DNA of 64,000 nt, from positions 183,060 to 247,059 of the forward strand of contig JAQGBZ010000057.1 of assembly GCA_034687125.1 (NCBI GenBank), read 5' to 3'. The stretch comes from Neelides folsomi (Eukaryota; Arthropoda; Collembola; Neelipleona; Neelidae). Positions 25,701 to 64,000 of the stretch are shown piece by piece (positions within the stretch are counted from its first letter, which is position 1; each line of letters begins with the position of its first letter). Position numbers and translations under genes: made by a program. Under the pieces are notes generated by a model that ran no database searches, had not been told where the DNA came from, and saw nothing but the letters and a program-made list of their open reading frames with translations.

Positions 25701-27633
25701 AAGCCTTATTCATTTTTTTCATTTAATTTCGAGGAAATAAGCTTTGAGAAATTTTAAGCATGAAAGGAGTATTTAAGCCCATTATTTCCCGTGTCCCCTT
25801 TTCTACTTATTTCAAGATTGTAAGTTTTGTGAAGGAGTGATGAAAAAAATCGGGTTAAGGAAGTTGCAAAAACTCCGTCGTTCCAACTCTTAATACCATA
25901 AAGGGAAGAAGATGGGAATTTGCGAAGTTCATATTGTATAACAAGATGAAAATTTGAAAAACAAGAAAGCTTCTCATTCTTTCTTATTTTTCTCTCAATG
26001 GCCTTCCTCAATCCCATTCTCTCCCTCACTCCCTTTTGACATAAGTCTTATAAGGAGAACATGTCTTTGGCTTCCACTCCGCTTCGCAAGTAAATACATA
26101 ACATACATTTCCCCTTGAAGAAAGTGGATAGAAAGGAATTGAATTTTTCATGGGAAATTATAATGAAAGCACCTGACAGAGCTGAATGACCTCTTCAATA
26201 TTCTCCAAATTCTCTTAGACCCTTGAAGCTTTCTATTTCTATACAATGAGAACTTTTTTGCATATCACCTTTACCCTCTCAAAATTTATTTTTTGCAAAT
26301 TGAACTTTCTAATAGGAAACGGAGAGCTTCTTCAAATATTCACATAACTCTCATGACAAGGATGAGAATGGGGTTCGCTTGGCCCTTACAACTTCCCTTG
26401 AATTATCTGTAGATAGGAAATTGAGGTTGGGTCTTCCTTCATGCCAATTCACCACTAGAATCGGAGATTTCTTAAGGTTTCTTTATGTGGGGCATTGGGG
26501 GGAAAGGTTGTGTTCAACAAATTGAAATTCCAAAAAATTGAAAAATATTCACATAACTCTTCAAAATTTTGAATGGGAAATGAGATTTCTCCTCCGTTCG
26601 GCAATTCTCATTGAGATCGAGTTAAATAATATAAAAAATTTATAACATAATAAAATCATTTTTATTCAAAAAATGGGAGTTGGAAAAGTTCACCTTCATA
26701 AATAAAGTGATTCTCAGATTTTCATTTAACTCGAAGTATAGGTATAATATTCCCTTGGTCGAGAAGGAATGTGATGTGGGAATATAGAACAATAAGATTG
26801 TGTATAATGTAAGTGGTTTATTGATCGGGCGGGATCGAATGAAAGAATTTCTCATGTTCGCATCCTTCTGTTGGGGCCATGCCAAATTGCAATTAAAAAT
26901 TGGCAATCAATCCATTTCAAATAGTTTCCCTATATTCTACTCATATAACTACTTAATTCCTTTGTTACGTAATATTAGTATACATTCTGTATGGTATAGT
27001 ATATTATTAGTATATTTGGACTTTCCACTCCTCCTGTGTAGATTATTGGCCTTTGGGTTGGAGGGGAATTGGGAGTTGAGCCAAGGGATTTATAATATCA
27101 AAGTATCTCTCAGGGTAAGGACCCATTTATGAGGGAGATAAGGGATCATAATAATCCAATTCACTCTTCCTAAGCTCATCAAGAGCGGGTTAAAGAGCCA
27201 ATTATGGATCATTATTACATTACCCTTTGTGCCGTCTTCCCGCATCCTTCCGAATCCATAATACTTATTAAGTAGCTGCGAGATTCCTCTCCCGAATTTC
27301 ACTCTCTTTAATTTATCCTTTTAATTATTTTTAATCATTCGCTCTTTGAGAGATTTCCTCATAAGAATAGGACGGTTCTTCAAAGTCGCTCAATTATCGC
27401 AATTATGTGCGGGGCCTTTCTTCATTGACAAAAGAACCTCTCAGCTCCAGCCGTTCCATTTCATCCCTAATTAACCAATTGAAAAAGAAGAAACTATTAA
27501 GAAATTATCATCATTCTGCTCCAATTCGGCCATATTGACCTTTCACATTTAAATATTAAACATAACATTGCTATTTATATAGCAATAATATTTAGACAAT
27601 TAATAATACTATTTTATATTAACAATATATAAA

Positions 27634-27676
27634 CAATGTCTAAAATATTATTAGATAAATAATATTTTAGACATTG
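27634..27676. repeat. Perfect 19-bp inverted repeat with 5-base loop
   Basis: The left arm caatgtctaaaatattatt (27634-27652) is the exact reverse complement of 27658-27676, separated by agata. A related partial copy of the right arm (aataatatttagacaat) lies about 75 bases upstream near 27583. It may be a remnant of a small inverted-repeat element. Confidence 0.85.
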
Positions 27677-30600
27677 ATGATACATTGTATAGGTATAATA
27701 TACATACTTACTATAGGATAGTATATGATACATTCATTTTTAATTTAGTATACCGCCTTTGTAATACAATATGATAAGACGGAGTAGTTCATTAAACTAT
27801 TTTATATAATATTGAGATTAATGTAAACTTTATGTAAATAAAGAAAGAAGTAATAATTTATAAAAAAAGAAAACTTTACATTTTCACTAATGAATTCTGC
27901 ACTTTTTAAGAAACATGAAAGAGTTTGCAAATTCAGACAATGAATAAAGTTTATGTAAAATCCTTTCTTCCTTAATTTATCAAACTTCAAACAAAGTTAA
28001 AAATAAAACACCGGATCTTTTAGGTTTAACTCATTATAACATTATAAGAATTATGGTGAAAGATTCGTTGAACTTTTGATATATTAACAATTAATGATAA
28101 TACTTTAAGTTCCAAAATCAACCAGTTAAACAAATGAAGAAAGGTTTTAAAAGAGCAAATGTACAATTATAAAAAATAGGATGTTATTTATTTTTCATTA
28201 AATTACAGAGCTCAACTTGAATAATCTTAAATTTAAATTATTTACATTTTCATACAAGCTTAGCTATTCAAGCAAAAAGAGCGTTTCTCTTGTTTATGTG
28301 TTCCGGATCCTACACAATATTTTATTTAAATTGAACATGATTTGCCTACAGATGCTATTTTACTTATTTTAGCTCGAGGGACTCAATTTGTTATTCTGAA
28401 GCTTTCCGCATCTGCAAGAAACATTAATGAGAATTTCCTCAACAGATCCTCCTTACTAAATGATAAATAGCAAAGGCCTTTGCCAAATGCAACGGCGATA
28501 ATGAAAATTTTAACATTGCATTTTCCACTTCCCCTATGCCTATGCTTAATCACAAGAGAAATAAATAAACCATTTTACACTACATACATATACTAATATT
28601 ATTAATCAAGGGAAAATTGTTATTACTTAATAAAGTTTTGCAAACTAAATAATAAACTACTTAATATGACAGGGCAAAAAGATTTAATGTTTTGCCTATT
28701 TCAAAATAAATTATATTTTATTAGCCTTAATTGAGTGAGTTGCACTTAACCTTGAAAGAAGTGTGAAAATTATTGGCATAATATAATAGTTTAATAATGA
28801 ACTTATGTAGGACATACAGTAAATAAATGTATCATATATGTATGTACATATTAGTATAAGGTCGTTAGTTTTTCTTCAACATGAGTTTGTCCTTATTATA
28901 AACTTTGTATTGGTTATTGGGCGGAATGAAGTCAGGAGGCGAAAAGAATTATTAAATAAATGAAGGAGAGAGAAAAGTAATAAATAGGAGGGATAAGAAT
29001 TGAACCATTTGGCTTCAAAAGGGAGTTTGGAAGTTTGGGAAGCTAATGAGGTTCTGGATCTAAGTGAAACTCGTCATCCCCGACTGGTCTCGTTTATGAA
29101 ATTTCTCCTTTTCTCGACTGTCCAATTACGGTCGACTGTCCGCTCCTCCAGAGAACATAAGGCCGTAATGGGATTCCAACATAAAGACTCTCTAAGAAAG
29201 TGTTGTAGGTCTCCAGAGAATCCCTACGAGGGAAAGTCTTGTCAAATCTCAAGATCCTCCAGCCCTTCGTAATGAGAATAATTGACGGAGAGATGTGATG
29301 AGGCAGCTGTGAAAAATGTATTATTGTTTTTCCTCATCTCCTCTTTTGTCCAGAGTTTTCTTTTCTCAGAGCGTTTCTCAAACCTCCATTTCTTATTCTT
29401 TCCCACTCAATATCCTCGCACAAGTTTCACGCATTTTTTTACGATAAACTCGATTTGGCATTATTTGGCATTATTATCATTGTCCAAAGCAATAAATTGC
29501 AAATGAATGCAAAAATGCAACAAGGCGTGGTTTTTCTCCTTGTAACTTTTTTTCTCATCGCCATCGCATTCAATTATTGTCAAAGTTTCTTTATCTGTTG
29601 GAATGGAAGGCGGAGCGCGTAGGAATCCATACGTCTCTTCTCATCTTCCCTCACTTCGGTCCGTCGGCCATGGAGAGAAAAGAGAAACGTTTTCTCCTTC
29701 ACCCTTCAAAGAAAGTTTTTCCCCCTTTTCCCTCTTCCTCTTTCTATCGAATCTCCCCTCGGCAGTCACCGCCGCCACTTTTTTTCAATGTGTGAAAGGA
29801 GAGAATTTTAATTAATTTTTCAAGGGGAGGAGGAACAGACCAATTGGGCTAATTGGTAAACCCGTTTCCTTTAACTGGTTAATCGACCAACCCCCTTTGC
29901 TCTGCTACTTCAACATCTATCTACTAACTGCTATCTAACTAATACATAACACAAAGTTTGTAATAGGAATAGTGAATGAATAAGCTGAGTACCTTCACTC
30001 CGACAGTGGAAGGGAGGGAGGCTTTAGGAAATGGAAAACTTTGGAATAAAAATTAATAGGAAAATGAGGGAAGTTGGAGAGACCAAGGGGAGAATTTGCA
30101 TCGAGAAACTCCTCACAATCTCATCTTGATTGAACTTTTTCCAAATTTTTTACTTTGTTCTCTTTGGTTCCTTCTGATTGTCAATACGCTTTGGGCACGA
30201 TGAGTATTCAAAGCCGAATTCGGTTGAAGGCAATTGAATTGATCAAATTTTTCCTTTGAAAAACAAAGACATTCAAATAAAATTTCAAATTACTCCAAAA
30301 CTAAAAAAAAAGCTGTCGAAATAATGCATAATGCATCATTTTTAAATAATTAAATAAAATAGTATAAAATATTTATCCATAATACAGTAAAAAATAGATC
30401 GAATTTGAAATTAGTTTTTAATATAATAAACCCTTGATCTTCATTTTCTCAGTTCCTCTGAAGAATAAATATTTCCCAGGTGTATAAATATATTGCACCA
30501 TCTCTGTCTCTTAATCAATAATGACAATACTTATGTGTATCACAGATACTGTATGTGATGGGCTGGGTAGAAAGAGAACAATTTACTTTTTCCCTTTTCC

Positions 30601-33176: not shown

Positions 33177-33300
33177 TATCATGAGATTTTTTTATTTCAA
33201 AACCCCGACGTTGTCGCAAGATCCCCAAAATTACATGTTACTTATTATATGGGAAACTTGCGACAAGGTCGGGGTTTCGAAATAAAAAAACCTCATGATA
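33177..33300. repeat. 44-bp near-perfect inverted repeat (long hairpin)
   Basis: The left arm 33177-33220 and right arm 33257-33300 are reverse complements over 44 bases with three mismatches, separated by a 36-base spacer. The arms start with tatcatgag at the outside and end with ttgtcgcaag toward the loop. The fold would be a stem of about 44 base pairs. It could be a small foldback transposon or MITE, or a transcribed hairpin of small-RNA precursor type. No clear target-site duplication was seen. The ends of two open frames cross it but do not look coding. Confidence 0.85.
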
Positions 33301-39410: not shown

Positions 39411-40556
39411 CCATATATTAATTAGATTACTTTTATGTAAACTAGATATATGGTCGTGGTACATACTACATACTAATATTATAATTTTTCCCATGCACTC
39501 CTGTGAAAGAATTTGCGATTAGATATAAATTCCCAGTTTATTTTCGATTTGTTACAATAATTGCTTTAAAGTTTTAACCTACCTAATCGTTATTGTTTGG
39601 TGTGTGATACTAATGGCACGTTTATGGGATGACCATTTCTATTCTTTGAGCTTTATAATGAAGAATAACAATATAACAACAGATATAATATATAACTGTA
39701 CATAAGTAATAACCATTATTTGTAATTTTTTTATCTTTTTATCAAGAAATCCTTCATTATCATTATCATTTAATACAAAATACACCATTAATTGTCGATA
39801 AGGTATTGTCAGTGAAATGCTAAACTAGTACAGATAGGCATTTTTGTTTTAATTGTTCCAGGAAAAATACAGATACCTATAAATTAATATTATTTATGTA
39901 GGTATGTAATTTTGATATTAATACATTACGTTATATGTAATATAAATATTGCTAAACCAATAAATACATTAGGTAGGTATATACTTTTATAAATAATATA
40001 GCACATATAAATATGTAATATACATAATTAATCTTTCAAATATTTATATGATTTTGAAGTTTCAATTACGAATATTAATTATTTACAAAAGATTACCTTC
40101 TCATGACTCACATAATAATAACTTTCGTTTAGCACTACTAAAAGTAAGTACGTTTATAAAATTATGATTTAAATATGTACGATCCACAATGTGAATTCCA
40201 CTTACCAAATAGCGTAATATTAATATTAATAAGTAAAGATTAAAGCCTAAATAGGCATTTATTACAGGTAAGAGAGTAAAAGAGGACTCTGAGATTATGA
40301 GAAAATGCCGTTAAATTATTATGAGATGTTTATTAAAAAGAAGTTTAAAAAACTCCAAATGAAATTATTCCAACTGAATTTCAAAAATTGGAACTCCAGG
40401 TTTGACAGGCCATCCTCAACAAGCATTTTAGTGATTGTTCCATTTCCTGGTGCTATAACTGAAATCGCCGTCTAAAAATTATCGGCAATATGAATTATTT
40501 TATTTAACCCCATAAGTTAAAAAAGTATCAAATATGTTATCTAACATTTTTTATTA
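39411..40556. other. Intergenic AT-rich spacer
   Basis: Sequence upstream of the CLCA gene. No open frame looks coding and no RNA gene was seen. It is very AT-rich, with scattered TA-rich runs. Confidence 0.6.
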
Positions 40557-41285
40557 AAAAACCAATTTGAAAAATTGAAGAACGACTGAGGCATGGGTAA
40601 TAAAAAGCATGAAATAACCTCAACAAATGATTAAATAATTTCCGAGGTCGTCGCAAATTTTTTAAGTATTTTACAACAAATATTAGTTAAATATCTGACA
40701 TTCGAGCCACACGCTTCCCTATGCTTCCCCATGTTACATAATAGAGAACATACACTTAAGCGTCAGACACTTATGTTATAACCTAGCCTAATGAGTCTTA
40801 GGTCATTTATAGAGGCATATAAGACCTTTAAATTCTCCATTAGAACATATTGTGTAAATTACAATCTACATAATTTCTAATACTAAATATCTTGAACAAT
40901 GGTTAAAACTTTCAAGTGTCAGACCCTTACATCATAACCCAGTGTAATGAATCTTGGTTGTTTTATGGAGAAATACAAGAGCTTCAAATTCTTCATTAGA
41001 ACATATCGTGTAAATTACCTTTGAGAAGAATTACACACGCTGGAGAGCGTTGATCATTGTTAAACATTAATCAGATATCAAAACCTAAAACTCGCTTACC
41101 CGAAGAGCATATTACTGATACGTTAAGATGTGTTTGCTAAGTTTATTTATGATTACAATTACAATTTTATAACTATCTGTTCTAATTTGCGACGACCTCT
41201 GAAATTATTTAATCATTTGTTGAGGTTATTTCATGCTTTTTATTACCCATGCCTCAATCGTTTTTCAATTTTTCAAATTGGTTTT
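40557..41285. mobile_element. Non-autonomous TIR element (MITE-like), about 730 bp
   Basis: Left terminal repeat 40557-40658 and right terminal repeat 41184-41285 are reverse complements over 102 bases with only about three differences, so the insertion or a conversion event is fairly recent. The outer ends read aaaaccaatttg and the inner ends tcgtcgcaaatt. The interior of about 525 bases has no coding frame and carries a two-copy tandem repeat of 156-base period. Absence of a transposase makes it non-autonomous. A target-site duplication was not obvious, so the superfamily cannot be named. Confidence 0.75.
40752..41018. repeat. Two-copy tandem repeat, 156-base period, inside the TIR element
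   Basis: The segment 40752-40862 (with cgtcagacac, ttataacct and ccattagaacatattgtgtaa) recurs at 40908-41018 as a diverged copy (gtgtcagaccc, ataaccc, tcattagaacatatcgtgtaa). It probably arose by internal duplication in the transposon interior. Confidence 0.7.
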
Positions 41286-41560
41286 ATTTCATGATTTTTA
41301 ATCGAAAGGAGTGAAAGTGATTTTTAAAATGGGAGCATAATGGATAGTAAACGACAATTAGAAGATTGTATTCATCTTGAGTGTGATGGCAAGTCACGTA
41401 GTTAGTTTCAAAATCATAAGTTAAATCCATTTAAAAAGTTTAACGTATTTGCCGATCGCTTTAAAAATTATTTAATATCCAAAAAATAAAATTTAAAAAA
41501 ATAGAATATTTATTATTTGTGTTTCTAATGGATTTAGAATTTTTTCTTTTATGGTTAATC

Positions 41561-41765: not shown

Positions 41766-43403
41766 TTATCGGTCTCAATTTCACAGACAATTCAGTCTTG
41801 TGTCACTTTGTCTCCGACATCTAAAGATGATTGTGTTATTGAATTTTAAAACTAAACATATAAGTTATAGAAGTAAATATGTAGCTTGTATTTAAATTTA
41901 AAATACTCTTCTGGATCATGACATCTTCTGATATTGAGTCTGCAAATGGAGGGACCATGACCACTTGTTTATTGAAAACGAAAGCTGTCAAATGAAGATG
42001 TTTAAAAATCCATAGATTTCCTTTGACCTCCTTCAACTTGGAATTATTGATCCTAATATTTTAAAAATCATTAGAATAAAAATACTTATTAAGAAATTTT
42101 TCATAAAATTTTAATGCACATTACAATCCATTAAAACGATTACTGAACTATTAATCAGGAACCTTTGTGTAGTGAAATGCGAATGGCCAAGACGCGAAGG
42201 AAAATCGTTGAAAGCAACCGTGCTATTTTCGCTTGCCTTTTATATAGAGGTAATCATATATTTAAATAGCATTTTGAGCATTTTTATTCAATATATATTA
42301 TTATATAATTATAAATACAATATTGGATATAAGATATCTTAAGTATTATTTACTTTTTAATATAAAAAATACATAATTTATAATAATAATATGACGAAAC
42401 TGAAGAAATATTATTTACTTGGAACATTCTTGGTAAAAAATTGGAAATCAATCCAATCCGTTTAATCGCATTAAATCTCATCTTTTCCCTCTCCTATCCT
42501 AACTTTTAACAAAAAGACGTTTTCCCAAAACATGACACAAATACAAAGCAAAATGCATTATTTTTTGAGCATTTAATATTATAGTCACTTGACAAATTAT
42601 TAAAATGCTCTTTCTTTATCTGAAAATTATTTCCTATCTTTATCATGATCATGTAAGATGTTCATTATTATAATAATATGCGTGAACATGATTGTTATAA
42701 ATGATGATTAATTAATTACATACTAAAATTAGTAATTAAAGTAATCAATGTTCATTGATCATCAACACATTCAATAGAAAATGTTGCTAAAGTTGGAAAG
42801 AATTTCTCTAATTTGTATGGGCATGGATAAAGAGAGAGACAGAATTACATGAAGGACGCAGAGAGTTTCGGCAAGAGACACATCAAACTCCCATTTTTGC
42901 AGACTTCCCTAGTGGAGAAAATCCGACTTGTCGACTATACATTGCATTGGATTTTGCAAGGTCTGAAATCCTTGTTTGAATTCTTGGTTTTCCCCCTTTC
43001 AAGACACGGCACGAGATGTGGAAATGTCCAGCGCCAAAGTCTCATTGAGAATCAGCGGATCAAACCCGTGCCGATCGCCGATCCTCCTCTTGATCCCTTC
43101 TTATTAGTTAATACTCTTTAAAACCCTCCTCAACATTTCCTAACATTCATTCCTTATCCTATCCCATTCAACTCCCGATTAATTAATAGTTTATCATTCC
43201 TCGAACTTCTTCAGCTCTTATCTTCATCTTTAATTAAATTCTCCAACACGCAAGGCAAGAGAGACAGAAGAGATAAGGAGGCTTTTAATCCCCCATTCAT
43301 CATTTTCAGATTAGTTTATACTCATTAAGTACTGTAACCTTCATATCTTAAAAAAACCGACATCTTAACCATTCCTGAGTACAACTTTTACCACGAGCGA
43401 AAA
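41766..43403. other. Intergenic region upstream of the SMYD gene
   Basis: AT-rich spacer. An open frame of about 90 codons on the plus strand (42849-43121) has no domain and no clear splice context, so it is not called as a gene. No TATA box could be assigned with confidence to the SMYD start at 43404. Confidence 0.5.
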
Positions 43404-45773
43404 ATGAGTTCAATGGTGAGTGGTTTTTTAACGTTATTTATATTTACTATAAATATTGGCATTTAATTTATTCTTGCTTGTCCAGTAAGCACAAATATAA
43501 TTTAGTTAAATGTTATTAATTCATTACTTTTAGAATTCCAACATTAAATTACAGATGTAGACATGGGCGATGAATGTAAAAAAGTATTAATTCTTTATAG
43601 AATGTCGTGAGCGAGAGCAATGGAATGAAATGTGAAGTTTGTCCAAATTCTGGTCACTTGACCTGTACATCATGTCACGAAGCTAATTACTGTTCCAGAG
43701 AACATCAAAAGGCCGATTGGAAATCGCACAAAAAGGCATGTTCCTTTCTTAAACTCTGTGAGGATCAAGATCTCGGTCGCCATTATGCTGCTACTCGGGA
43801 TATTAAAGCTGGAACTGCAATTCTTAATGAGAATCCACCATTGTTCTCACCTTCAGAAAAATCAGATGGAGATTTTACCCCTGTTTGTCTCGGATGCTGT
43901 GCAGAAATGCAAGAGTCAAAGAAATCAAATCGGTGCAAAAGGTGCAAGTGGCCAGTGTGTGGGAAATCATGTTCTCTAGTAAGTCAAAAAGGCATTATTT
44001 TTAATCACTAATTTTTATTAATAATAGTTCAATAATCATTTCCAATTTTTAATTTTTCAGATTGCATCGCATGCTGAGAATGAGTGTCCGATATTTGAGA
44101 AGAATCACGTCAAATACTCATCACCTCCACCATCATCTGCCAAGCTGTCTCCCTATTATATCTATGAAGGAATCAACGTACTCAGAGGAATCATTGTCAA
44201 GAAGAAAAATCCAAGTTTGTGGGAAAGGATGATGAGCCTCCAATATGAAAGGAACAACGACTACAACACAAACAAAGAACCATTTTTCCAAATCTGGCAC
44301 GACATGTTTAAGAAGATTAGAGAGTTCTTCGGAATCACCAACGATCCCGAACTAGGGAATCACGATAATTGGGTACGAGTTTACTCAATTCTGGTTGTCA
44401 ATGCATTCGCATCACACCATCTGGAATATGATGAGAAAAATGATCATCAATCGTAAGCTAAATACAAATTATTAATACTTGATTTTTAAACAATTATGAT
44501 ATGAACACAGTTATATAAATATTAAATAACGGTTAACGGTTAAATAAATAATACAATAAGTACTTATATTTTTAACATTAAACAAATTATTTTTTGATTA
44601 ATGAATTATTTTGAATTTTAAATACAGAAAAGTTGTTTTACTTGCACCGAAAGCATCGATGTTTGCTCATGCCTGTGCACCAAATTGTTATTGGAATATC
44701 GGCTTTGCTCCAACTTTTCAATTGAGGATTCGAGCTTCCGTCGATATCAAAAAGGGAGAAATATTAACAATTGCCTATTCACAAACCAATCTTCATTACG
44801 GGACTTTGAAGCGACAAGACGTGGCGATGATCACGAATAGCTTTATCTGCAAATGTGTACGATGCATGGATCCCACAGAATTTGAAACTTATTCCTCTTC
44901 TGTCAAATGCAGCAGTTGTAACAGTGCGAACGAGGAAGGTTATTTCATTTCAACGAGTCCTCTCGATTTGTCAGCTCCGATTAAATGTTCTCATTGTAAT
45001 CGAGAAGAGAAGCGGGAGAAGGTGAACGAAGTGACTAAGGCCGTTGAAGAAGAACTTCAAGCTGCAACTTTTATGAGCCTTCTTCAACTTCACCAAGGAG
45101 CACCGGATTCCAATTGGGCACCTTATGAGAACTTTATTGAAAATAACAAAAACACTCTCCACAAGAACCATTGGATATTTCAAGAAGCTAAGCGTATGAT
45201 TTTGAGGAGCAATACAATGATGAGAGATCAGATGGAAACTCTCGTCAACAATATGAAGAAAACAGAGAAGTACATTGGAATACTTCGAGAATTTTTGGAA
45301 ATTCACACTGCTATTTCTCCTGGAATAGCATTCAATAGAGGTATAAACACTATTTAAATTTAAATTTAAAATTCAAATCCTTGATCCATCTTAAAAATAT
45401 TTATTCTCACCTCATTTTAAACATAATAATTTACATTATTATTGCAAATGAAATATTTAGCATATTATTACTTTTCGTCCAAATTCTCAAATTGATCTAT
45501 TTTATAGGAATTCTTTTAAGGAATTTGAGTGCAGCGTTGCTGGTTCAACTTGAATATGAAATGCCATCTGATAAAGATTTCAACATATTTCTCAAACAAC
45601 CAGGTGTTCTCAACAGATTGCAGGAAATCAAGAAGTTCCACGATGAAGTATTTAACTACTTCAACGGAGACGTCACGTCAATTCTCCCTAACGGTCAATT
45701 TTCATATGCGTTTAAACAATTTCAAGAGAATCGGAAGATGCTTCAGTTTTACATAACCGTTGCGGAAGAGTAA
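43404..45773 (+). CDS. SET and MYND domain protein (arthropod SMYD type)
   Basis: Five exons (43404-43415, 43601-43978, 44061-44452, 44628-45340, 45508-45773) join into 586 codons. The first coding exon holds four codons (MSSM) and ends at a consensus donor. An alternative start is the ATG at residue 13. The MYND zinc finger at residues 15-51 reads C-x2-C-x7-C-x2-C-x5-C-x3-H-x7-H-x3-C, with His at the sixth ligand. The split SET domain starts after it (ATRDIKAGTAIL) and resumes at about 262. There the motif NHSCxPN is AHACAPN (274-280), followed by KKGEILTIAYS and a post-SET CKCVRC cluster (335-340), then two further CxxC pairs. The C-terminal part is helical in character, as in SMYDs. Known SMYDs methylate histones or other proteins, binding S-adenosylmethionine through the NHSC asparagine. 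That asparagine is alanine here, so activity may be weak or absent. Confidence 0.88.
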
Positions 45774-47467: not shown

Positions 47468-49013
47468 ATGGCTTTCTCATCTGTTATTAATTCTTTTAAA
47501 TCAGTCGTTGGATTGTTCTCTTCGAACAATCAAGATGAAAGCATCAATCCAAATTACCTAACAGCTGACCCTAATGGATCTTCTTGGAGAGACTTCCAAT
47601 TTGAAAGAAACAACAATCATGACGAAACTAATGGATTAGTACTTCACGGAGTACTCGTGCCCGAAACCATTTTGGAAATTATATTGAGCAAACTTCCACT
47701 TAAAACAATATTGGAAGCAAATAAGGTACAATATTATATTTGCATATTATATTATATTGTAAGGAAATTAATTATGAATGACTAATAATTATGAAAACAG
47801 TCTGATTACGAACATTACGAGTAAATAATATTTCACAATTTGAATATCGAATAATGATAATATATAGTAATTCAAAAAATTCTTATTTGTCAATTAGGTC
47901 TGTCGAGCTTGGAAGGACATTATTGTCCTGAAATCATTCTGGAAGAAAGTCTACGATATCAATAATTGTAATTGGGAAAATGTTCCTTCAAAATTGAAAG
48001 GTCATAAAAATTCTTGGATCGCCTTTTATGCCGAGGCAAAATATGGAACATTTACACGAAACTTCATCAAAAATCATTCTGGAAAAGGTAATAATTATAT
48101 AATTGCTTATAATAGGCATTTACTTAATGCAATGCAAGGCAAATATGTGCTAATAAGAAGTCTTGCATATTGTTTACAGATGGATTTGCAAATTGGCTTT
48201 TAAATGATGATAACAATCGGGGTGGTATCTGGATCATTGAAAATACTCCGAAGGGTTGTAATCCCCTTCTTCCTGATCCTATGTTTGGGAATACTTCGTG
48301 CTTTGTAAGCACTTACCAACACTGCTACTTGATCCAACAAATAAATCTTTATGAAAATGGATTATCACCAGCAATCATGAAAATGGCAATTCCATTTAAA
48401 TTCCAGTTTTCGTTGATGTAATTATACTATTATTTCAATATAATGATTAACATGTTAAAATATAGCCTATTAAAAATTAAAATATTTTGGATATATTTAT
48501 GTAATATACCATAAACAACTAATAAAATAAATATTTATGTATGCCCATATAAATATTACAATACATTCTACCAATATCATAAATATAAAGGAAGTGGTTA
48601 AAATATAATTTAACATTATTACAATTCTCACACATTATAATAATAATTCAATGTATTATTATATTATTAAAATTAGCTTAATTAAATTACACAAAATCGT
48701 AATTTTTATTTTTTTTATTTGTTCCAGGACTGCTCCGAGGTTTGATTGCTCGTCGGAATACGATGTTGTAGTTCATCTGATCAATTCGAAAAACAAAGAG
48801 ACTCTTGCCAGTGACACAATTGAAGGAATCCATGATCGGGGCATAGAATGGAAAAATGAAGCCATTGAAATCCCATCTTTTACAACAGAAGAAGAGGGTG
48901 ACATTTATCCGGATAAAATCGTTGTCAAAATTCGAGCAAAAGATAGACAATTTTGGGCTGGTCATTATGGAGCGAAAATCAGCCGCGTTTGTCTTAAAGT
49001 TAATATTGATTAA
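47468..49013 (+). CDS. F-box protein with F-box-associated (FBA, sugar-binding type) domain
   Basis: Four exons (47468-47725, 47898-48087, 48180-48417, 48728-49013) join into 323 codons. After a polar N-terminus of about 60 residues, an F-box (about 63-103, PETILEIILSKLPLKTILEA followed by the VCRAWKDI segment) would bind Skp1 in an SCF ubiquitin ligase. The remainder fits the FBA domain of the FBXO2/6/17/27/44 group: DGFANWLL, then SCFVSTYQHCYLIQQINLYENG, then DCSSEYDVVVHL, and FWAGHYGAKISRVCLKV at the end. In mammals this group recognises high-mannose glycoproteins for degradation, using a Tyr-Trp-Lys cluster near the C-terminus. Here that cluster reads Phe-Trp-Ala (304-306), so glycan binding may be changed. 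The junction between exons 3 and 4 (donor at 48418) rests on frame and family alignment only. Confidence 0.85.
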
Positions 49014-52015: not shown

Positions 52016-55000
52016 ATGACACTCGATCTCGAACCTCGGTTGATAGCCGAGATAGTCGCAACTTGTAATTCTATTGGAACACTCGACGAGGACGAATATA
52101 TCAAAGGACCAGAATGTCTCGGTGAGAATAAAATAAAATTATTTTCCTTTGTGTTTACATTCTACTTAAAAATACTGATACTTTTCAGTTTCGTCATATA
52201 CTTTTTAAATATAATATGCAAGTTATTACAAAACAAAATATTATAAAAAGAAATTGATAATATTTTATAAAATGTCTATTTACCTTGTTATAAAATAAAT
52301 CCATACATTATGAATTTCCAGAAAGTATCAAAGATCTGGTACTTTATCTTCGTCGAGACAACGAATCCCATTCGACTCGACGTCTTTTAGGAAAAACTCA
52401 AGTTGTTCAGAAGGATCTTCTTCCACTTGTTAAAGCTCATCATCGGGATCAAGAACTTTTTGATTTAATTTTGAGGTAAATAATTTAATATGTAATATGT
52501 ATACAATGAATATATATATATATACGAGAATAAGGACTAATATTTACTTTCGATTTGGGTGTATATAAAAATTTACTGGTTTGTTAAAATTGAATGGTTT
52601 ATGTTTACCTATAGGTTACTCGTCAACTTAACCAATCCACCTCTTCTGCTTTACGATGAAACGATTCCAAAGCATTCCGAAAAGAGAAAAATTTATATGG
52701 AAATTACTCAACACCTTCAAAACTACATGGATGCTTTTGCCGATGAAAATGTTTGGAAGTGTTTTGTACAACGTTTCGAGTCACTTCTCAAAATTGTAAT
52801 TACTAAACTATTACCTAATGTAAATTAAGAGCCATTAATCATTCTGCAATTTCTTACTTTTTAATCCATATCAATTTATTTATCATTTATTCAGGAATGG
52901 GAACATCTTTTAGAAGAACATAAATTGAACATGGAAAGGCTGTTCATACTTATAAGGAATGTCTTGCAAGTTCCTTCAGATCCAGCCGCAGAAAAAAGAT
53001 CTTCAAGTGATGCTTCAAACCATGATCGAGTAAGTTTCATTTTCAGCCAAGTTTTTCAATGACATTCTATTGTATCGTATTAAAGATTGAATTATCATAA
53101 ATCAGTTATTTAAATCCCAATTATAACAAAGAATTTTAATTCGAAGCTTGGAATCCTAATGTCTTATTTGAATAGAGGGGTTGGGAGGGTTAAAGGGCCT
53201 AAGTTTAAGCCAGTGAATAAATTTCCCTTCATTTGATTTGAGAAATGATTTCCTGAGATTGGATTGAAAATGTGAGAATTCTCACTGGGAGGCCAAATCT
53301 ATTAATCAAATAAAGTTCCTTTTATATACCCAATTTTCTTCCGCTCCCCTTTCAGATCCTATGGGCTATGCATCAAGCTGGGCTTGACAGTCTACTCATT
53401 TCCATCGCCTCTTCATACTCCACACAAGACTACTGTTTTCACGTTCTAGAGGTTTGTTGACATATCATTTATTTTATAATGATAAAGATTAAAATATAGA
53501 TATTATAAATTAAAAATGCAAATATTTATTTAAAAAAAGTAATTATAAACATTAATTAAAGTTTCTGAGAGTTCCGACACATGTTTTAATATGGCTAAAG
53601 AAGTTTGTCAACTTAAAATGTTTTCGTAAGCTAATTGCTAATTAGTCTGGATGAACTTGAGTTAATGGTAAACATTAACTTCCAGATTGTGAGTCTCATG
53701 TTTCGCGACCTGTCTGGTGAGGAGATTGCGAAGAGCAACGAAGAACGAACTTTAGCTGACCAACTTCGCGAAGAGAAGGAACTAATGGAATTTCGGGAGA
53801 AAGAAGCAATACAGAAAGCCATTCAAATGAGGAAACTTTCATCAAGGTAGCCAATGCCCTCATGAATAATTTCTCTTCTTTCTTCATTTTCTTCATGCTG
53901 TCTCGCATTCAGGAAACCCACCGCAGGATCGAATGAGATCATTTTGTAAAAGCTTTCTTTGCAATTTTTAAGTCTCCTTTAATTGAAACTTAAAACCTTA
54001 TATTGAAGGAACCCGAGACTCTTGAGATTGTAGTTGAAGGAATGTAAACAAATTTTTAATTAGATATTGAATCCTGCTTAAGCTCTTTTTGTTTCATTTT
54101 CTCATTCCAGAATATGTGCATTTTTGTTTAACCTTTTATTTTTTCATTCACAGTTTTTGTTCTATTAACTACATCAGTATTAGTATTTTATATTTTAAAG
54201 TAAATATTTGTGTACATTATTATAGACATATTGTTGATAATTTATTAAATTCCCCATTTCTCTTTTATAAACTTAAACATAATAGATAAAAATCTTGTAA
54301 GTTACATATAAGAAAAGCGTGTCAATATTTTAATAGAGAATGAGGTCGCCGAAGGTTTAATAAAAGTTAAACAATTGTACTTTCAAGATTCTTCGGAGAT
54401 AATTAGAGTTTTTGTGGTTTAATTCCAGACACTCTCGGTTTGGTGGGACGTTTGCAGTACGTGACTTGAAAGCTCCAAGTGGGAACGACTTATTGTGTCA
54501 CAAGCCGATTAACTCTCTAGCCGACTTGAGTCTCGACGCTGGAAAGGTTAGTCATTCCTCATACAACTTTTTTCCCCCTCAGCTCCTAGAAAAAAGAGAG
54601 AAGAAAGTTAGAGGGAGATGAAAGGGGAATGAGTGACATGACACAGACATATTGTAACGACATCATTTTTCCCATCAAGAGACATAGAGGGGATAAATTG
54701 GGCTGGTGAAAGTCCCTTCGTAGTAGTTGGTAAAGGAGTTGTTCGAGATATAACCAATTTCTCCCCTTTTATACCAGGAAATGATGAAAAACCACTAGTG
54801 TGGTTTCCCTATTATTATCCACGGTTTCATATTTACAGAAAAGGCGAAAAATGCCGGGTAACCGGATGCCGATGGCAGAAACTAATTCGACACGTCGGTC
54901 AACCCTCAAAATCCGCTGTTTTCTCAAGGAGTTCTGCAATGAGTTTCTCAGCTCTGCCTACAACACGATTATGAAGCAAGTCAAGGTTTGTCTTTAAGAC

Positions 55001-55770
55001 ACATTTTGACTCAATTGAGTTTATCTCTCTCACCAGCTTTCTGCCTTTCCGCCTCCTTGAGAGTCCCTCAAGTCCTCAACGTCCCAATCTACCTATTAGT
55101 CTGACAAATTCCTTTCCTTGTAATTTAATCTTTGTAATTTTTCTCCTTTATTTTCTTTCGTGGAAGGCGAAGGCGCGAAGAGATTTATTTATTTGTTATT
55201 CGATTTGGATCTCACTGTAATATTTTTTCTTCTCCCTGTAGAATCATATTCTACGAGTACGCTCTCAAGACAATGATGAAACATATTACCTCTGGGCTAT
55301 CAAATTTTTCATGGAGTTCAATCGACATTACAGCTTCGCTCTTGTCCTTGTTAAAGAAACGATGTCAAAGTCGAATTTCCATTATGTCCAAACGCTCCTT
55401 GACAAGTATCATGACATGATGAAGACCGATAAAGATAAAATTGTTTATTGGTCAAAAAGGGCCCATGTGGCACTTCGAGCCTATCAGGAGCTCTTTTACA
55501 CGCTTTTGTGGATGGACAAATCGAGAGATGAAACGACGAGAGAGGCTTCGAGATCTATCAAAGAGCTCGTTTTCATTCAACCGGAATATCGCGATTTGTC
55601 AGTTTCCCTTCTAACTTCTTATAACGCGTCGAAGCTGTCAATGGCATATCTTACAGACCTAATCGAAACCAACCATTTATTCCTAAAGATGCTTGAGGAT
55701 TATTTGAAACGGACTCCCGAATTGAAGGTGAAAGTTAAGAAACGCAAAAGAACCAAGAAGCAATCAAAAG
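52016..55770 (+). CDS. timeout: Timeless/Timeout replication-fork protein, N-terminal exons (partial)
   Basis: Nine exons (52016-52121, 52322-52475, 52615-52795, 52895-53029, 53356-53451, 53686-53846, 54429-54546, 54839-54985, 55242-55770) join in frame for 542 codons and end in a phase-1 donor (AAAAG|GTTAGT). They cover the TIMELESS N-terminal domain almost residue for residue with human TIMELESS: LESIKDLVLYLRR, LLVNLTNPPLLLY, VLEIVSLMFRDLS, HSRFGGTF, ETYYLWAIKFFMEFNRHY, TNHLFLKMLEDYLKR, then a lysine-rich stretch (KVKKRKRTKKQSK). This resembles Timeout/Tim1 rather than circadian Drosophila TIM. Known role: nuclear, with Tipin and Claspin, stabilising replication forks and checkpoint signalling. 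The family is usually over 1100 residues. The C-terminal exons (including the PARP-binding region) were not found in the remaining 8.2 kb, so a long intron or a truncated locus follows. Confidence 0.92.
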
Positions 55771-57475
55771 GTTAGTGAATTCATTTTTAGCTTCGTTTTT
55801 TCATCAAAGCGTTATTTTAGAAAACGAAAAAACTCTTCCTCAAATAAAATTTAATGCTTGTTAAATTAATCTAAACTTGAACTTTCAACTTCAAATGACT
55901 AGAATCTCAAAAGTAAAATTTTTAAATTCGTGGGTTCTTTCAAAGTTCAAAGCCATTTTTGCATCGAGTTAAAAAAACTACTTGTAGAATGAATTTTACA
56001 TCAAGGTTGCTCAGCTCAAGTTGTAGCATTTCAAAGCCAGTGCAGTTAGGTATGCAGTTTAATATTTTATTCATAAAGAGATTGACCCATTGCTCTTGTT
56101 TATCTCAAGTTTTATCTCGTTCCTTATGTCATATTAGGCAAACTCTTATTTTTTATTGTACCATGTTTTTATTCGCAATTCTATATAATAAGTAAGCACA
56201 AGACATTTCCAGGATTTTCAATACATACTATTTCCTCTTGTTCTAATGACTTCATCTAATAACTTCGTTATTTTTACGATATTACCAATTGAACGATATG
56301 GAATTAGGATCATTTGACGTTCCATCCATTTCCATTAAATAAATCCAAATGTTTCTATAAGCTCTGATGGGAAAATAAACCTCCCAGATATGCTTTGGGA
56401 TTATGGAAAAGTCGGATCGGTCTCAATAAATTTTTCATTCCTCCGTTTTTATTGAATGTAATAAAGGCTAGAGGTAAATAAAATCAAAGTTTGGAGGCCA
56501 TTTAGGATCAAAATGAGGGAATTGATTTGTGTGTAGTAAAACAAGGAACGATTGTGAGTCCAGGCGGCCCCGGCCCGGCCATCCATTACAATTTTCTCTT
56601 TTGAAGGCGGAAGGCAGTTTGAGAAGAAAATGGACATTTTATTCCTCGCTTAATGCTTGGAAGAAGAGTTGGGAACTCGGGTATTTATGTCGTTGTAAAT
56701 TCAGGTTACGATCCTCACCGTCCTCACGAACACTTCTCTCCCCTCCTTGGACAGAAACAAGAGAATAATAATAATGGTAAAGACTCTGACAGAGAACAAC
56801 CCCCTTTCTTCTCTTTTGCATGAGAAAGGAACAGGAGGGAAGGAGGGATAAGGAAACTTGGAATGTAAATGAGAAAAATCAAGGGGCATATTTGCATAAG
56901 TGCCCTGAAACACATGATGTTCTCTTAATCTTGCAAATTACTAAATGGCTTAGTTTGACTCCATTTCCAAATGCATTTACGTCCCCGATGTCTCCTATGT
57001 TTTAAATCCCCTTTCTGAAAGGGCCTTTCCCGTCTTAAATTACAACACGTGCGCACTCTCATCGTCAAAATCTTAATTTTTAAGATTAATGAGAAGAGAT
57101 AAGGGAAATCAATTCCACCTAAGCACAAAGATCGTATCAGCTTCGAAATAATTAGACTTGATAATTTATTTCAATTGTAAAATAACTCAAGTAAGTTAAA
57201 AAAAATGGTGTGAAATTGAAAGTGTCATGTTTTGTTAGGTTAGGTGAAGTGAAATAGAAATAAAAAATCGCCGACCCGAATTTCGAACATGGAGCAATGT
57301 ATTAGAGTATCTATGTATGTATAATCCTGGATCAGTTAAGACATGCATTATTGAGAAGGGAAATTGTAGAAGGGAGTAAAGTGCACTGGGCAAATCCCCC
57401 TTTCTCTCTCGTCGAGAATAAAGAGCTCGAGGGCCTTGGAGAAATGTAGTCCTCTCACTACTCTCATAGTCTCAC
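55771..57475. other. Putative start of Timeless intron 9; no exon seen
   Basis: Follows the phase-1 donor of Timeless exon 9. No exon resembling the Timeless C-terminal half was recognised on the plus strand. The sequence is AT-rich with a GC-rich patch near 56555-56580. Confidence 0.5.
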
Positions 57476-57893
57476 AATGAGAAGTCCATTATATTGGGTA
57501 AATTCACGAACCCCTTAGAGGAAAGATCGGAGTATTTCTCAGGAGAAGCTTTCCCACCGAGAACCAAACCTGCAGTAGAGAGACAAGGACCGGCGGAGTT
57601 GGGAATCTTAGGAAGGAATAAGTGGAGGGGAATGTAAAAGATTCTTTGGGCAGGGCCATCAAATCTACTTATACTTCCCAAACCGGAGGAACCCGAGGAT
57701 AATAGAAATAGAAGATGTGAAATGTTTCTGAATCCTAACCTCAGAACGACATCATAAAGCTCCCGATCACGGTAATGGCCCTTGATAAGTGGCAGTAAAT
57801 CTTTCTCAACGACTCGCGCTTGACCCACCAGACGACGAATTGAATGGTCATCATAGTAACGGTGGAGTTAGAGGACCGGGTATTTGACACTCT
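57476..57893 (-). pseudogene. Decayed antisense copy of Timeless exon 2 with a trace of exon 3
   Basis: On the minus strand, 57893-57740 is 154 bases long, exactly the length of Timeless exon 2. It is bounded by an AG (CTCTAG) and a GT (CTGAG|GTTAGG) at the same phase. Its translation aligns without gaps to exon 2, with 30 of 52 residues identical, including VV-KDLLPL, H-RD-EL and the final LR. One codon matching Tyr is TAA, a nonsense change. About 230 bases further on, at 57513-57476, a short stretch (FVNLPN, with ttcgtgaatttacccaat) resembles the start of exon 3 (LLVNLTN) but is frameshifted. Because intron borders are kept, this is a genomic duplication, not a processed retrocopy. It lies about 2 kb beyond the last Timeless exon found, in opposite orientation. 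No other copied exon was seen. Confidence 0.75.
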
Positions 57894-60800
57894 CTAGAGA
57901 TGCATTATTCCTCACCTTATTTATTCATCTTTCAATTTCGTGTCAAACATTACTCCCGTCCTTAATAAAACGAGGAAACTATTTGGATTTTTAGGAGGAA
58001 ATTTTCTCTCAAAATGGAGAATTTAATATTTTAATTTTTAAATGGTTGAATATTTGAATGCATTTGGGGAATCTATCAGTCGATGTAAATGTTTGGCCAT
58101 TGGGGAGGGAAGTAAATTTCAGGATTTGCATAAGGATGGAGGAACTGCGTGTCATCCCATCTAATTAAACATCTAATTAGAAATTAGGATTCAGGGAACG
58201 AGGAACTCATACATTATGACCAGATGTGTCTCAATCCCACATACTATCCGGGAAAGCACATACTTGGGCATATTGGAAAGCACAGGGCTGAGGGAAAAGA
58301 ATGAGTCTAACATGTTCAAAGGAACATCCCATGCAAACAACACACACCTAAAGCATAGGACCTTCCACAAACTCTCACACAAATTGCTCTTTTCCCCAGT
58401 GGTTTCCTCGCTGGCCGCCGTTGTCTACCTAATTACAAAATATAGAATAGGCTATTTAAATATAAACTCATTAAAACTTTTAAATGAATTGTTCTTAACT
58501 GGTCGTATGATATTAAGGCCAGTTTTACTAAATTACAAAATATATTAACTTGATCTCAAGTATAGGGCCAAATTTAGATTAGATAAAGGCTAAAGTTGAA
58601 TAACTTTCCTCATCGATTCTACTTTCACTTTTGTGTTAGAACTGCTTTTGGATTTTGGATGAGATGATAATATTGAAGTTGTAAGATCCCGAGTGGTGGA
58701 CCAGATGCGTTGTATTCCAAGTTGAAGGATGAAAAAGTGAGGTTGAAGAGTCAGCTCAGCTTTTATTTATTGGGAGGGGTGGAGAGAAAGCATAAATTTT
58801 CTGTCGCTTCTCATACCCTTCCTTATTGACAGATGCTCTCAACGAGGATTGTATGAGAAGAATGTAGAAATCTGCCCCTGCCATTTCCACTCCATCTGAT
58901 TAGAAGATGGAAGTTTTTATAACTCTCTCATCTCCTCCTCGATTATCCGATGAGATGTAAATCAAATAAAAAGAGAGGCAAAGTGATTCTTTCCCGCTTT
59001 CTCTCCCCTCTATTAAAATACGTTCTCCTTCATCCTAGAGTGTTCATGGGTTATAAATTCCACTTTTACTAAACCCATAGGAGTATACTTGACTTGTTAT
59101 TATTGCCTTTCTTTAAGCTCACTTTAATAAATATATCCCAAGGCAGAATTTTTTTGTTTTTCAATATAAGTAAGTTAATATTTACTTAGAGTATATTGCA
59201 CATGGATGTTATTATATTGATAAGTTTCTGATATGTATCTGGTTTTGTTCATTGATAAATATCGTATTGTATTGAAGGAAATGTGAAAATTTTTATATTG
59301 GTATGCTGATAAAAGCATTTGAAGCTCATTCACAAGTTTTGTTTTCTAAATAAACCTCTGACATTATCTACGTATAAATTTTATTTTATCTTCGATATAT
59401 CTAGTATTTGTCGATATATGGTATCAGTTTCAGGAGGTTGTGACGTTGCGAGTAGAGAGAAGTACTATTTGGAATGTTATATGATACTCACTTTATAATT
59501 TCAACTTACGCAAGTTGGTCCTTAGATTCATACATGTATTCACTTTCTCGCCCTCCTTTTCTAAGCACCCTTAATTTTATTTGTGAGCATATAAACCCCT
59601 CATGTATGAAGATAAACGAATAAAGTGTCTAAACAGACACTCGAAACTTCATGAGGAGGAGCCCCCCATTTCCTCACTGTCCCGAAATTGAATTTTATTT
59701 TAAGAAACTCCTCTCAAGTTCAGCGTCCCTTCACGAGCGTAAGATTGAGGGCCATTTTCAATATTTGAGTTGAGGGCTTAACTCTCGAACCACTCGACTC
59801 GACTCGAGAGCTCATCTCAATTTATAACTAAAAGGCTACCCCCAATTCACAGATAAATCAAATCTGTCTCTCAAATCCCACAAAACTTACGATGCTCTCC
59901 TTTCTAGAATACAAATTGTCTATATAAACTTCACCCTTTCGAATATTCCACATTGTAGAAACCAACTGCAGCTTTTGGTCATAGTATTAAACATCGTCAT
60001 TTCTCCCTAAGAAAGTCATAAAGATGAGCATTTTGCAATAATTGTTATAACTGCAAGCTAGGGGGAATTAAATAGAGTGCTGTTTAATGTTGTATGTGAC
60101 TAGGGTCAGAAACAAAGTTGTGTCAAACAAGCAATAATTTAGAAAAAAATCATTTTCTTAATAAGTGCTTTCCCATTTCTTTTATGTTACAATATTTGGT
60201 TGGATGTTTTTATATCTTAATCTTCTCAGCATTAGTCTGAACACTGAGTAATATTTAATCATGAAAAATGTTTGTATTAAAATTTTCATTAATTTTTCTC
60301 AACGTTGAAGTATTTTCCAACTGGTTCTTAATTAAAAAAGAAGTAGGGAATAAAATGCGGAAGAGAAAGTTTAATTAGGGTGAAAGTAGGATGAGCGAAG
60401 TTTAAAAGTTTAATATTTCTGAGTTGTGAGGGTCGAGTTGGCGGTTCGAGGCGTTTGAGGGTGAGGATGAGTAACCGAGAATTTGAGTTTCTTTTTACTT
60501 TATACGGGAAGATTAGAAGGGCGGGTCTCATAAATAATTCAAGAGGACAGTAACCCAATTTTATGCTGTCTCACTCACCACGGCCCGTAGAGGCTAAACA
60601 GACCCCAATTTCCTTTAAACCACCCCTCAGTCAAAACTATTCTAAACTTGAATAAAACAAAAGTTGAATTCTTTTAATTGGCCTCTTTCCCTTTAAACAC
60701 TTAATCTCTTCTAACTAAATATTTAACATCTTGTGACTAATTGTTCCTACTTTAATTTATCGGCTAGTTTTTCCGACCCGTACAAAATAAGTTATTTATA

Positions 60801-63800
60801 CCACTATTTAATATTTAAAGCGTAATCATCTTTATTATTACGTATCAAATTGTGTTTTATATTAATCTTTATCAATGAAAATTTTAGAATTATTCTAAAA
60901 TAATGATTTTGTAAATAATTACAGGTTGATATTTGAAAATCGTAAAAAATTTTATTCTGTGACCAAAGGGGAAATAAGTGGAAATGGAAATAACGTGGAA
61001 ATAAGGTTTTTCCTCTTTATGCTCTTACCAAACCCATGATGTGGGAAAGTCATGAAAGATAATTATAGTGAGGGGGACGAGAGATCCAATTTCATGATAA
61101 ATAAGTTTCTCTCTCAAAATTCCACACACTTGGCTGACTCCTCCGCACACATTACCTCCTGAGTTATTTGGCCCATTCTCCCATCAATGAGAAATAGAAG
61201 TAGTGAAAGGAAGAGTAATCATAATATTTGGCCTTGTAGGAACAGAAGGACTTTCTCCCATTCCCTGCACTTCTGCATCCTACACCTTTTTTGCTGAGAT
61301 TCAATCCCACTCAATTCCACTTTTTTCCTCTAAAAGCCTCATTGAAGGTAATAGGGAGGGGGGGAATAGCTAGTTTTGAACGGAGTTGGAGAAGGAACGA
61401 ACCCAATTCACCATTTTCAATGTATGTTATGTAAAGGGAAGATTGGATCCACACAACTCACACTATCCTTCCTTATAACGACTCCCACACATGCACACTT
61501 TTATATGACCTTCCTACAAAAATGAAATTCTAAACAGATACGGAGCATAACTCTATACAAATCTTTGCTGCAGAAAATGACTCGATCTCGAGAGCTCGCT
61601 CAATATTTCCATATATATTTGTGTATTTCCGAATGGAGGGATCCTATTTTACTTCATAAATTATATTTTCAAATGTAATAGTTTGATTTTATTGAGTATT
61701 CGAGAAGGAAGGGGGAAAGGGAACCATTCAAAAATGTTTTGAAAATATTTGAATTTTTTCATAACAATGCTCATGTTTTAATAATTGAATTGACTTATGA
61801 AAATCGAAATTCGATATAAACTTAACGTTTGGTATAATCATTTATGAAAATCGTTTATACACATTGACAAAGTTTGTTCAAAATTCATATGCGGTTTTGA
61901 AAAATTCTTACAATTGATCACGAGCAGAGTGAATGACTCAAGTCGTAATCTTCCCATCTCTCCGCATCGAGTAACAACAATAAGAAGGCAGGATTTGGTG
62001 CGAAGGGGAAAATGTCCCTGATCTCTCGGGTTAAAAAGAATCAGGAGGTTCTTTCAAATACAGAGGCAATTGTAGGGACGATTCTTGAATTTTGAAAGAA
62101 CTTCGACTTCTAAAAATTTCTTTCATATAATCTGAATATCTTGAAAGCTCATACGATTCATACGAGAGTTTATAGTTATTTCCAGATCGTTATTCGTATA
62201 TCGGATACTTCATATGGATATGGTTTATGTGTAATACATAGCATGGTTGTAGTAAAGAAAAGAATCTACCATTTTACTATAAGTATAACATACGATACAT
62301 AGTAATTTATGTTTCAGTAAAGGATTTTATACAATTCCACAATACTTGCGTAACGATATGGTACGAATGCGTAAAAAGCAGAAATTCTCTCAAATTTATA
62401 CGTGATGATTCGAGTTCTTAAATTCAAAAAACCTCAACCGGAACGGAAATTCAATATAAGATATAACAAAATTTTACAAAAAGTAAATTTGAGCAGAAAC
62501 GCGTAAGAAGGGAAATCAATTTGGAATTGTAGTGAAGATTTGGAAAGTGTAAAAATTCAACTAACGCCAAATTGCGGATGAAATATAAATGAAAAGAGCA
62601 AAGTGAATTTCCCTTTTCATAACAAAATTTTATTCTGAGACTTTAACAATTTTTCCAAACTAAATCCTAGCTAGGACTCGTTGAACTTTATCCAAAAATA
62701 AAATCCTCCTTGGCACTTGAAAGTTTTTAAATCGGAAAATCCAATATTCATACAGTTACTGTCACTGTTACTACTGCTCATGTATGTACATGAACATACA
62801 TTAGGATATATTATAGTATATTTATTTTTCTGCTTTGTGTCGTATTTTTCCTTTTTGGGAAAAAAATAAGGAATTTGGTAAGGAAAATTTCAACGTTCTT
62901 CAGTTGAAGAGATTTGTATAGAAAGAAGGTGAATTGAAAGCTTGCCAAAACACCCTTTCATCTCTGTCCTTCGGGTCTGAAGAGAGAAAGTTGAATTCGC
63001 ATAGAGAGTGGAGTGAAGAGCACATTCATCTTCTTCTCTCCACTCACTCCATTATTAATACAAGAAAAATACGCCCCATATTATATTTCAACTTTAAGGG
63101 TGAATATAAACGGAAATTTCCATTTATACTATGGCTATTACCCTATCAAAGAGATCTATCATGATGAAATCGGGGCAAAGTTTGGAAGAAGAAAAAAATC
63201 TATTTTCTCTTCTTCGTATCATAACGTATTATAAGAGTTCATGACAAAGATTCCATATTTTTATGACTTTCTTGCACCGGATGGATTCAAGATGAATCAT
63301 CATTCATGCACATATGTTTAAATAAAATGCAATATTTGGCCCACTAACTTAAAAAATTTGGCTGGTGAAGCCAAGTTAGATCGAGACGATATTTTGTTTT
63401 ATTTTAATTTGACTTTTGATTCGACTCACCCATTTATCATCATGATTGAGTTATGATGAGATATTTTCTATAAAAATCGTTATGTCTACCCAATTCATAT
63501 TATTTAGTACCTAGTGTGTAAGATATGTGCCCATTTCTATTGTACATAATATGTATTTTATAAGGCGTTTGAGTATAAATTATAGAAAGTTTCATCCTAT
63601 AAAATATGGTTCACTAGAGCTTAAAAGAAAATTGCTAAAGAATGAAAAGAAAAATTAGAAATGAAAGTAAAGTTGTAATGAAAAAGAAATCTTCATTTTT
63701 ATCCCCTTTAAGAACTTGCTTCCTCTTCGGTTTTTTCTTTTAGTGAAATGTGGAGAATGGAGAATCTTTTTAAGCATTCAAGTGTGTATGCATTTAAGTT

Positions 63801-64000
63801 CTTTGAACATTTTAAGAAATAAATGGTTCGTTCTCGCTAAGTTCTCCGAGATAAGAACTTGAGAATTTGAAAGGTTCCTTTCCGCACTTCCAATTTTCCA
63901 TTTGAATCATATTCATTATTGCTTTCTTTGCCCTTCATTCATCATTAAAGATAAAATCTTTTCTAATTCACCTTTCATTCATAAAAGCATATTATATATA
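57894..64000. other. Gene-free AT-rich sequence to the end of the window
   Basis: No exon, RNA gene or transposon was recognised. Open frames here are short and without domain features. It may be intron of Timeless or intergenic. Confidence 0.5.

What the first reader, a model, noticed from the sequence alone, without database searches (positions are those of the whole stretch)
57476..57893. Inverted, decayed copy of Timeless exon 2 (and a trace of exon 3) downstream of the gene
The copy has exactly the length of the real exon (154 bases), both splice borders at the same phase, 30 of 52 identical residues and one stop codon. It is antisense to the intact gene and about 2 kb past the last exon found. 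It shows a DNA-level duplication with inversion at the locus. Conservation of the core (KDLLPL to the final LR) with only one nonsense change hints that it may have been functional until recently or may come from an older paralogue. If Timeless continues downstream, the copy lies in its intron, and antisense pairing or exon inclusion in other transcripts becomes possible.
Basis: partly seen in the sequence, partly recalled or inferred. Interest (0 to 1): 0.7.

Follow-up and report, generated by a model that had tools for sequence, protein, structure and literature searches.

The report
Inverted relic of a Timeless exon
Behind the replication-fork gene Timeless in an unnamed animal genome lies one backward, damaged copy of its second exon, most likely the last recognisable piece of a lost sister gene; this is an ordinary kind of gene fossil.

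Summary
The core observation is real. Window 57740-57893 (minus) copies Timeless exon 2 (52322-52475, plus): 154 nt in both, no indel, AG and GT at the same borders, 30 of 52 residues and 67% of bases identical, one TAA. It is far beyond chance (64.7 bits; best of 40 random windows 23.5). The trace of exon 3 is not supported. No second intact Timeless was found in the 75 Mb assembly, and copy and flanks are single-copy DNA. Differences fall 15/8/28 on codon positions 1/2/3. Simulations fit poorly with neutral decay from birth and favour a sister gene kept under protein selection for most of its life and disabled late. The host gene's 3' exons sit on contig C450 and join in phase, so the copy probably lies in intron 9; the contig join is unproven. 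Best reading: a relic of an old, inverted, lineage-specific Timeless (TIM1/timeout-type) duplicate. A weak exon 9-like piece (63799-63876 minus) may belong to it. Antisense pairing is possible but unshown. Daphnia pulex has comparable truncated TIM copies (PMC2680839).

The parts
52016..52121 (+). Timeless exon 1 (start codon at 52016)
52322..52475 (+). Timeless exon 2, the intact exon, 154 nt
52615..55770 (+). Timeless exons 3 to 9 with their introns (E9 is 55242-55770, donor GTTAGT); PF04821 E 5.3e-60 for the joined translation of exons 1 to 9
57740..57893 (-). inverted, disabled copy of Timeless exon 2, 154 nt, with splice-like AG and GT borders
57868..57870 (-). TAA stop inside the copy (codon 9 of the exon frame)
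57472..57739 (-). open frame continuing past the copy; no convincing exon 3 similarity, no codon-position pattern
63799..63876 (-). possible second relic, like the end of exon 9 (shares the run TNHLFLKM); weak
   Evidence: 25.0 bits, reached by 2 of 40 random windows; 8-residue run reached in 1 of 1000 random 8.2 kb regions, a test chosen after seeing the match

Best explanation
The feature is a single-exon relic of an old second Timeless gene of the TIM1/timeout (replication-fork) type. Inferred history: a segment with Timeless was duplicated in inverted orientation next to the original, in this animal's own lineage. The duplicate kept making protein under selection for most of its existence, then lost function; its other exons decayed or were deleted, and exon 2 survives with one stop. 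Shown: homology, length, borders, stop, codon-position pattern, no other intact copy found in the assembly. Inferred: that the duplicate was once complete, when it lost function, and that it now does nothing.
For: 30 of 52 identical residues with no indel in 154 nt. Differences by codon position 15/8/28; NG86 dN 0.24, dS 2.4; LWL85 0.23 and 1.48. GC by codon position 0.71/0.27/0.48, with GC3 close to the gene's own 0.42. Simulated copies neutral since birth reached the observed share of third-position changes in 0 of 84 (omega 0.05) and 1 of 87 (omega 0.15) matched runs. ABC: median fraction of the copy's branch under constraint 0.73 without indel information, 0.88 with 0.1 indel per substitution. 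The copy is nearer to this genome's Timeless (30 of 51 comparable sites) than to human (18 of 51), C. elegans (16 of 51) or fly TIM (12 of 50); nearest to the real exon in 99.7% of 2000 bootstraps. With human as outgroup, the copy departs at 10 of the 25 sites where real exon and human agree (the stop included), while the real exon departs at 3 sites where copy and human agree, as loss of constraint predicts. No other Timeless N-terminal region found in the assembly.
Against: YN00 gives dN 0.36 and dS 0.71, ratio about 0.5, which a copy neutral from birth could give. Without indel information the ABC leaves 4.2% for constraint below a quarter of the branch and 17% for below half. Only 52 codons are available. 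The copy keeps 10 of 15 residues shared by the real exon, human and C. elegans, little more than its 20 of 37 elsewhere. GC is also raised in the non-exon stretch 57472-57738 (0.43, against 0.33 at 57895-58150), so composition alone does not mark the exon as coding. Recognisable copies are a biased sample of relics. No exon other than 2 is securely found; the exon 9-like piece lies on the wrong side of exon 2 for a collinear minus-strand gene. The assembly may be incomplete. No related animal genome could be searched.
Confidence: 0.65

Rival explanations
1. A partial duplicate: only exon 2 with short flanks was copied and inverted, and it has decayed neutrally ever since.
For: Only exon 2 is securely found. 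A stop is present and the copy branch looks faster than the real one. YN00 ratio about 0.5. Some upstream intron similarity remains, which is easier with less elapsed time.
Against: The third-position excess is hardly reproduced by neutral decay (0 of 84 and 1 of 87 matched runs). No indel in 154 nt although 53 to 56 neutral substitutions are needed on average. ABC weight for constraint below 25% of the branch is 0.4 to 4.2%, by indel rate.
Confidence: 0.16
2. The copy is still used: as an exon of an unrecognised minus-strand transcript, or as an antisense partner that pairs with Timeless exon 2 (hairpin RNA, small RNAs, circle formation), since it probably lies in the same pre-mRNA.
For: Splice borders kept. 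Predicted duplex of exon 2 with the plus strand of the copy -107.4 kcal/mol, against a mean of -50 (sd 8) for 200 shuffles, 0 of 200 as strong, and -70.9 for the best of 101 stretches of the downstream region that do not overlap the copy. Joined gene model places it in intron 9.
Against: The duplex strength follows from 67% identity alone, and no perfect run exceeds 6 nt. The stop breaks the frame. No expression data. The codon-position pattern points to protein, not RNA pairing.
Confidence: 0.08
3. The fragment came from the Timeless gene of another lineage (transfer, introgression, or contaminating DNA joined in assembly) and not from a paralogue of this genome.
For: Silent divergence is very large (dS 0.7 to 2.4 by method); the site is about 6 kb from the contig end.
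Against: Flanks are single-copy DNA of the same contig; the fragment lacks neighbouring exons that foreign gene DNA should carry; GC3 fits the resident gene.
Confidence: 0.06

Closest known systems
Duplicated (unprocessed) pseudogene fragments near their parent gene (general knowledge)
   Same: Exon-sized similarity, splice borders kept, disabling stop, single copy, near the parent
   Different: Inverted, reduced to one secure exon, and with signs of a long history of protein constraint before loss
Truncated TIM copies of Daphnia pulex (TIM-B, TIM-F, TIM-G; PMC2680839, passages read)
   Same: Extra Timeless-family copies in an arthropod; [quoted passage not shown] of two TIMEOUT homologues one is much shorter
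   Different: Daphnia keeps several copies, mostly of the TIMELESS/TIM-1 branch; here one intact gene of the timeout-like branch and one exon relic were found
TIMELESS / timeout (TIM1-type) fork-protection gene
   Same: The intact neighbour 52016-55770 is of this type: human TIMELESS 118 to 121 bits and C. elegans TIM-1 73 bits against fly circadian TIM 38 bits (species of the PDB chains are recalled, the call names only the molecule)
   Different: The copy is not a working member

Membership tests
TIMELESS family (PF04821), as a working gene | match above the family cut-off of 25 bits | tested here: not met
   131-codon frame holding the copy after its stop: 16.4 bits, E 0.0058; 15.6 bits in the genome scan
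TIMELESS family (PF04821), as a working gene | open frame across the exon and neighbouring exons | tested here: not met
   TAA at 57868-57870; in 55776-64000 no match to exons 1 and 3 to 8 better than E 0.07
TIMELESS family, descent | significant similarity to Timeless exon 2 and to human TIMELESS | tested here: met
Duplicated (unprocessed) pseudogene | exon borders or introns kept, no mRNA-like joining of exons | tested here: met
   AG and GT at the exon 2 borders; residual upstream intron similarity; no recognisable exon 3 joined
Duplicated (unprocessed) pseudogene | disabling mutation in the parental frame | tested here: met
   one TAA
Duplicated (unprocessed) pseudogene | no functional product | not testable with these tools
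   no RNA or protein data
Processed (retrocopied) pseudogene | neighbouring exons fused without intron | tested here: not met
   in register after the copy, 17 of 39 nt match exon 3 (2.7% of shuffles do as well) but only 18 of 60 and 50 of 181; protein shuffle shares 0.36 to 0.80; upstream the sequence resembles the intron end

The most novel reading that the evidence does not exclude
The inverted exon copy lies in intron 9 of its own parent gene and acts in cis: the Timeless pre-mRNA folds exon 2 onto it and so makes double-stranded RNA or circles that regulate a replication-fork gene, with the relic kept for that after its protein role ended.
Probability: 0.04. Interest if true: 0.55.

Novelty: new member of a known kind. 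Interest (0 to 1): 0.24.

Why it matters
It suggests that a lineage which now shows a single Timeless gene in this assembly once kept a second one under selection. Timeless duplicates underlie the split between clock and fork-protection roles in arthropods, so a lost further copy would be a small data point on how often such duplicates arise and vanish. Otherwise it is an ordinary gene relic.

Tried and rejected
Exon 3 trace: not supported (a slight hint in the first 39 nt only). Retrocopy: rejected. Recent duplicate or uncollapsed haplotype: rejected, since DNA identity is 67% and the flanks are single-copy. Fly-type circadian TIM as the source: not favoured; the copy matches fly TIM at 12 of 50 sites and the local gene at 30 of 51. 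Remnants of the C-terminal exons in the window: none above noise (four queries; highest score 21.6 bits, E 0.15, at 42547-42600 minus). Exon 9-like piece at 63799-63876: kept as a weak lead only. PF05029 (TIMELESS_C) search: no match here and none in the 14 controls, so uninformative. Literature: four searches; one paper seen in passages (PMC2680839), the rest as listings with the start of the abstract. The species could not be named: the tools hold no animal genomes for comparison. That the window is from an animal, perhaps an arthropod, is inferred from the gene set and recall. An early nucleotide comparison with exon 3 was one base out of register; one search replaces it.

Full report
Setting. 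The window is the right end of contig C57 (bases 183060-247059 of 247059) of an unnamed 75.1 Mb assembly in 840 contigs. Its last part holds a Timeless gene on the plus strand: exons 1 to 9 between 52016 and 55770, joined translation PF04821 E 5.3e-60. It is of the TIM1/timeout type: among solved structures the best matches to exons 1 to 3 are 5mqi and 7pfo (121 and 118 bits; human TIMELESS, species recalled), then 8ouw (73 bits; C. elegans TIM-1, recalled), then 8dd7 (38 bits; fly circadian TIM, recalled).

The observation. On the minus strand, 57740-57893 is a copy of exon 2 (52322-52475). Both are 154 nt, with no indel, and AG and GT at the same places. Over the 52-codon frame, 105 of 156 nt and 30 of 52 residues are identical, and codon 9 is TAA. 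The score, 64.7 bits, compares with a maximum of 23.5 in 40 random windows of first-order composition. In the intron before the exon, the last 20 bases match at 12 and the last 60 at 27 (0.2% and 0.6% of 2000 composition shuffles do as well; the shared acceptor signal explains part of this); on the other side 18 of 60 match. The trace of exon 3 is not supported: protein shuffle shares 0.36 to 0.80, and in register 17 of 39, 18 of 60 and 50 of 181 nt match.

Uniqueness. The copy and both flanks occur once in the assembly. The protein finds only itself and exon 2; PF04821 finds five places, four in the intact gene and one in the copy, the last below the family cut-off; exon 9 finds only itself. 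The assembly may be incomplete, so a second gene elsewhere is not excluded.

Selection history. Differences fall 15, 8 and 28 on codon positions 1, 2 and 3; 17 codons differ silently, 22 change the residue (the stop included), 13 are identical. dN and dS are 0.24 and 2.40 (NG86), 0.23 and 1.48 (LWL85), 0.36 and 0.71 (YN00); the estimators disagree and dS is large. I simulated the real exon under constraint and the copy under constraint for a fraction f of its branch, then neutral, keeping runs with 47 to 55 differences. With f = 0, 84 of 1820 (omega 0.05) and 87 of 1820 (omega 0.15) runs matched; the observed third-position share was reached in 0 and 1 of those, and at least 30 identities with at most one stop in 1.2% and 2.3%. 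An ABC with 1909 of 316482 runs accepted gave f median 0.73 (5 to 95%: 0.29 to 0.94) without indel information, 0.82 (0.44 to 0.96) with 0.05 and 0.88 (0.58 to 0.98) with 0.1 indel per substitution. The present exon served as ancestor, rates and composition were assumed, and well-kept copies are easier to notice. The damage is somewhat heavier in the 5' part: 8 of 16 comparable residues are kept among the first 17, 22 of 35 among the rest. Of 15 residues shared by the real exon, human and C. elegans, 10 are kept, and 4 of the 5 lost lie in the 5' part; of the other 37, 20 are kept, so conserved sites are not clearly favoured.

Origin. The copy is nearest to the resident gene (99.7% of 2000 bootstraps), and the four-point grouping of real and copy against human and C. 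elegans holds in 86%. The duplication is therefore probably younger than the split from these animals; no closer relative was available.

Place in the gene. The C-terminal part of Timeless was found only on contig C450, minus strand, near base 1. With splice sites that I picked by eye, exons there join E9 and one another in phase at four of four junctions, with no stop to the contig end. If C450 follows C57 directly, intron 9 is about 52.8 kb or more and holds the copy and a leucine-rich-repeat-like gene on the opposite strand (LRR named by eye from the translation). The window and C450 share no similar stretch at E 1e-3 or better, so the join rests on phase and on the lack of another C-terminal part.

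A possible second relic. At 63799-63876 minus, a stretch resembles the end of exon 9 and shares TNHLFLKM. Its score (25.0 bits) is reached by 2 of 40 random windows. An identical run of 8 occurs in 1 of 1000 second-order random versions of the 8.2 kb, and 11 other real stretches of that size reach at most 6; this test was chosen after the match was seen. On the minus strand this piece precedes the exon 2 copy, the wrong order for one collinear gene, so it implies rearrangement, more than one relic, or chance.

Function. The likeliest state is inert. The predicted exon 2 to copy duplex is strong (-107.4 kcal/mol; the best of 101 non-overlapping downstream stretches is -70.9), but this follows from shared descent in inverted orientation.

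Known ground. In Daphnia pulex, two TIMEOUT and nine TIMELESS homologues were counted; [quoted passage not shown] The finding fits that kind of event. I found no paper describing this very case in four searches, which, without a species name, says little.

Noticed in passing
window 40558-41285: About 0.73 kb element with 102-bp inverted ends 97% alike; a query of 40500-41350 gave 95 matching pieces on many contigs from 36 candidate places, the element itself included: a MITE-like repeat family.
   Followed up: partly
window 33177-33300 and 27610-27702: Two imperfect palindromes (83% and 81% self-complementary over about 125 and 95 nt), perhaps further short inverted-repeat elements.
   Followed up: no
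L014-L015 (contig C450, plus strand about 17735-22270): Leucine-rich-repeat-like open frames on the strand opposite to Timeless, which would be nested in Timeless intron 9 if C450 follows C57 (named by eye).
   Followed up: no
window 63799-63876 minus: Possible exon 9-like Timeless relic, weak.
   Followed up: partly
window 43601-45357 plus; 48609-49013 plus: Neighbouring genes: a MYND-finger plus SET protein (SMYD-like) and a protein with an F-box-associated region (the FBA match, 27.8 bits, is below the family cut-off of 32.4).
   Followed up: partly
whole assembly G000: PF04821 rings only at this locus at E 10 or better, so no fly-type circadian Timeless was seen in this assembly, which may be incomplete.
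   Followed up: no
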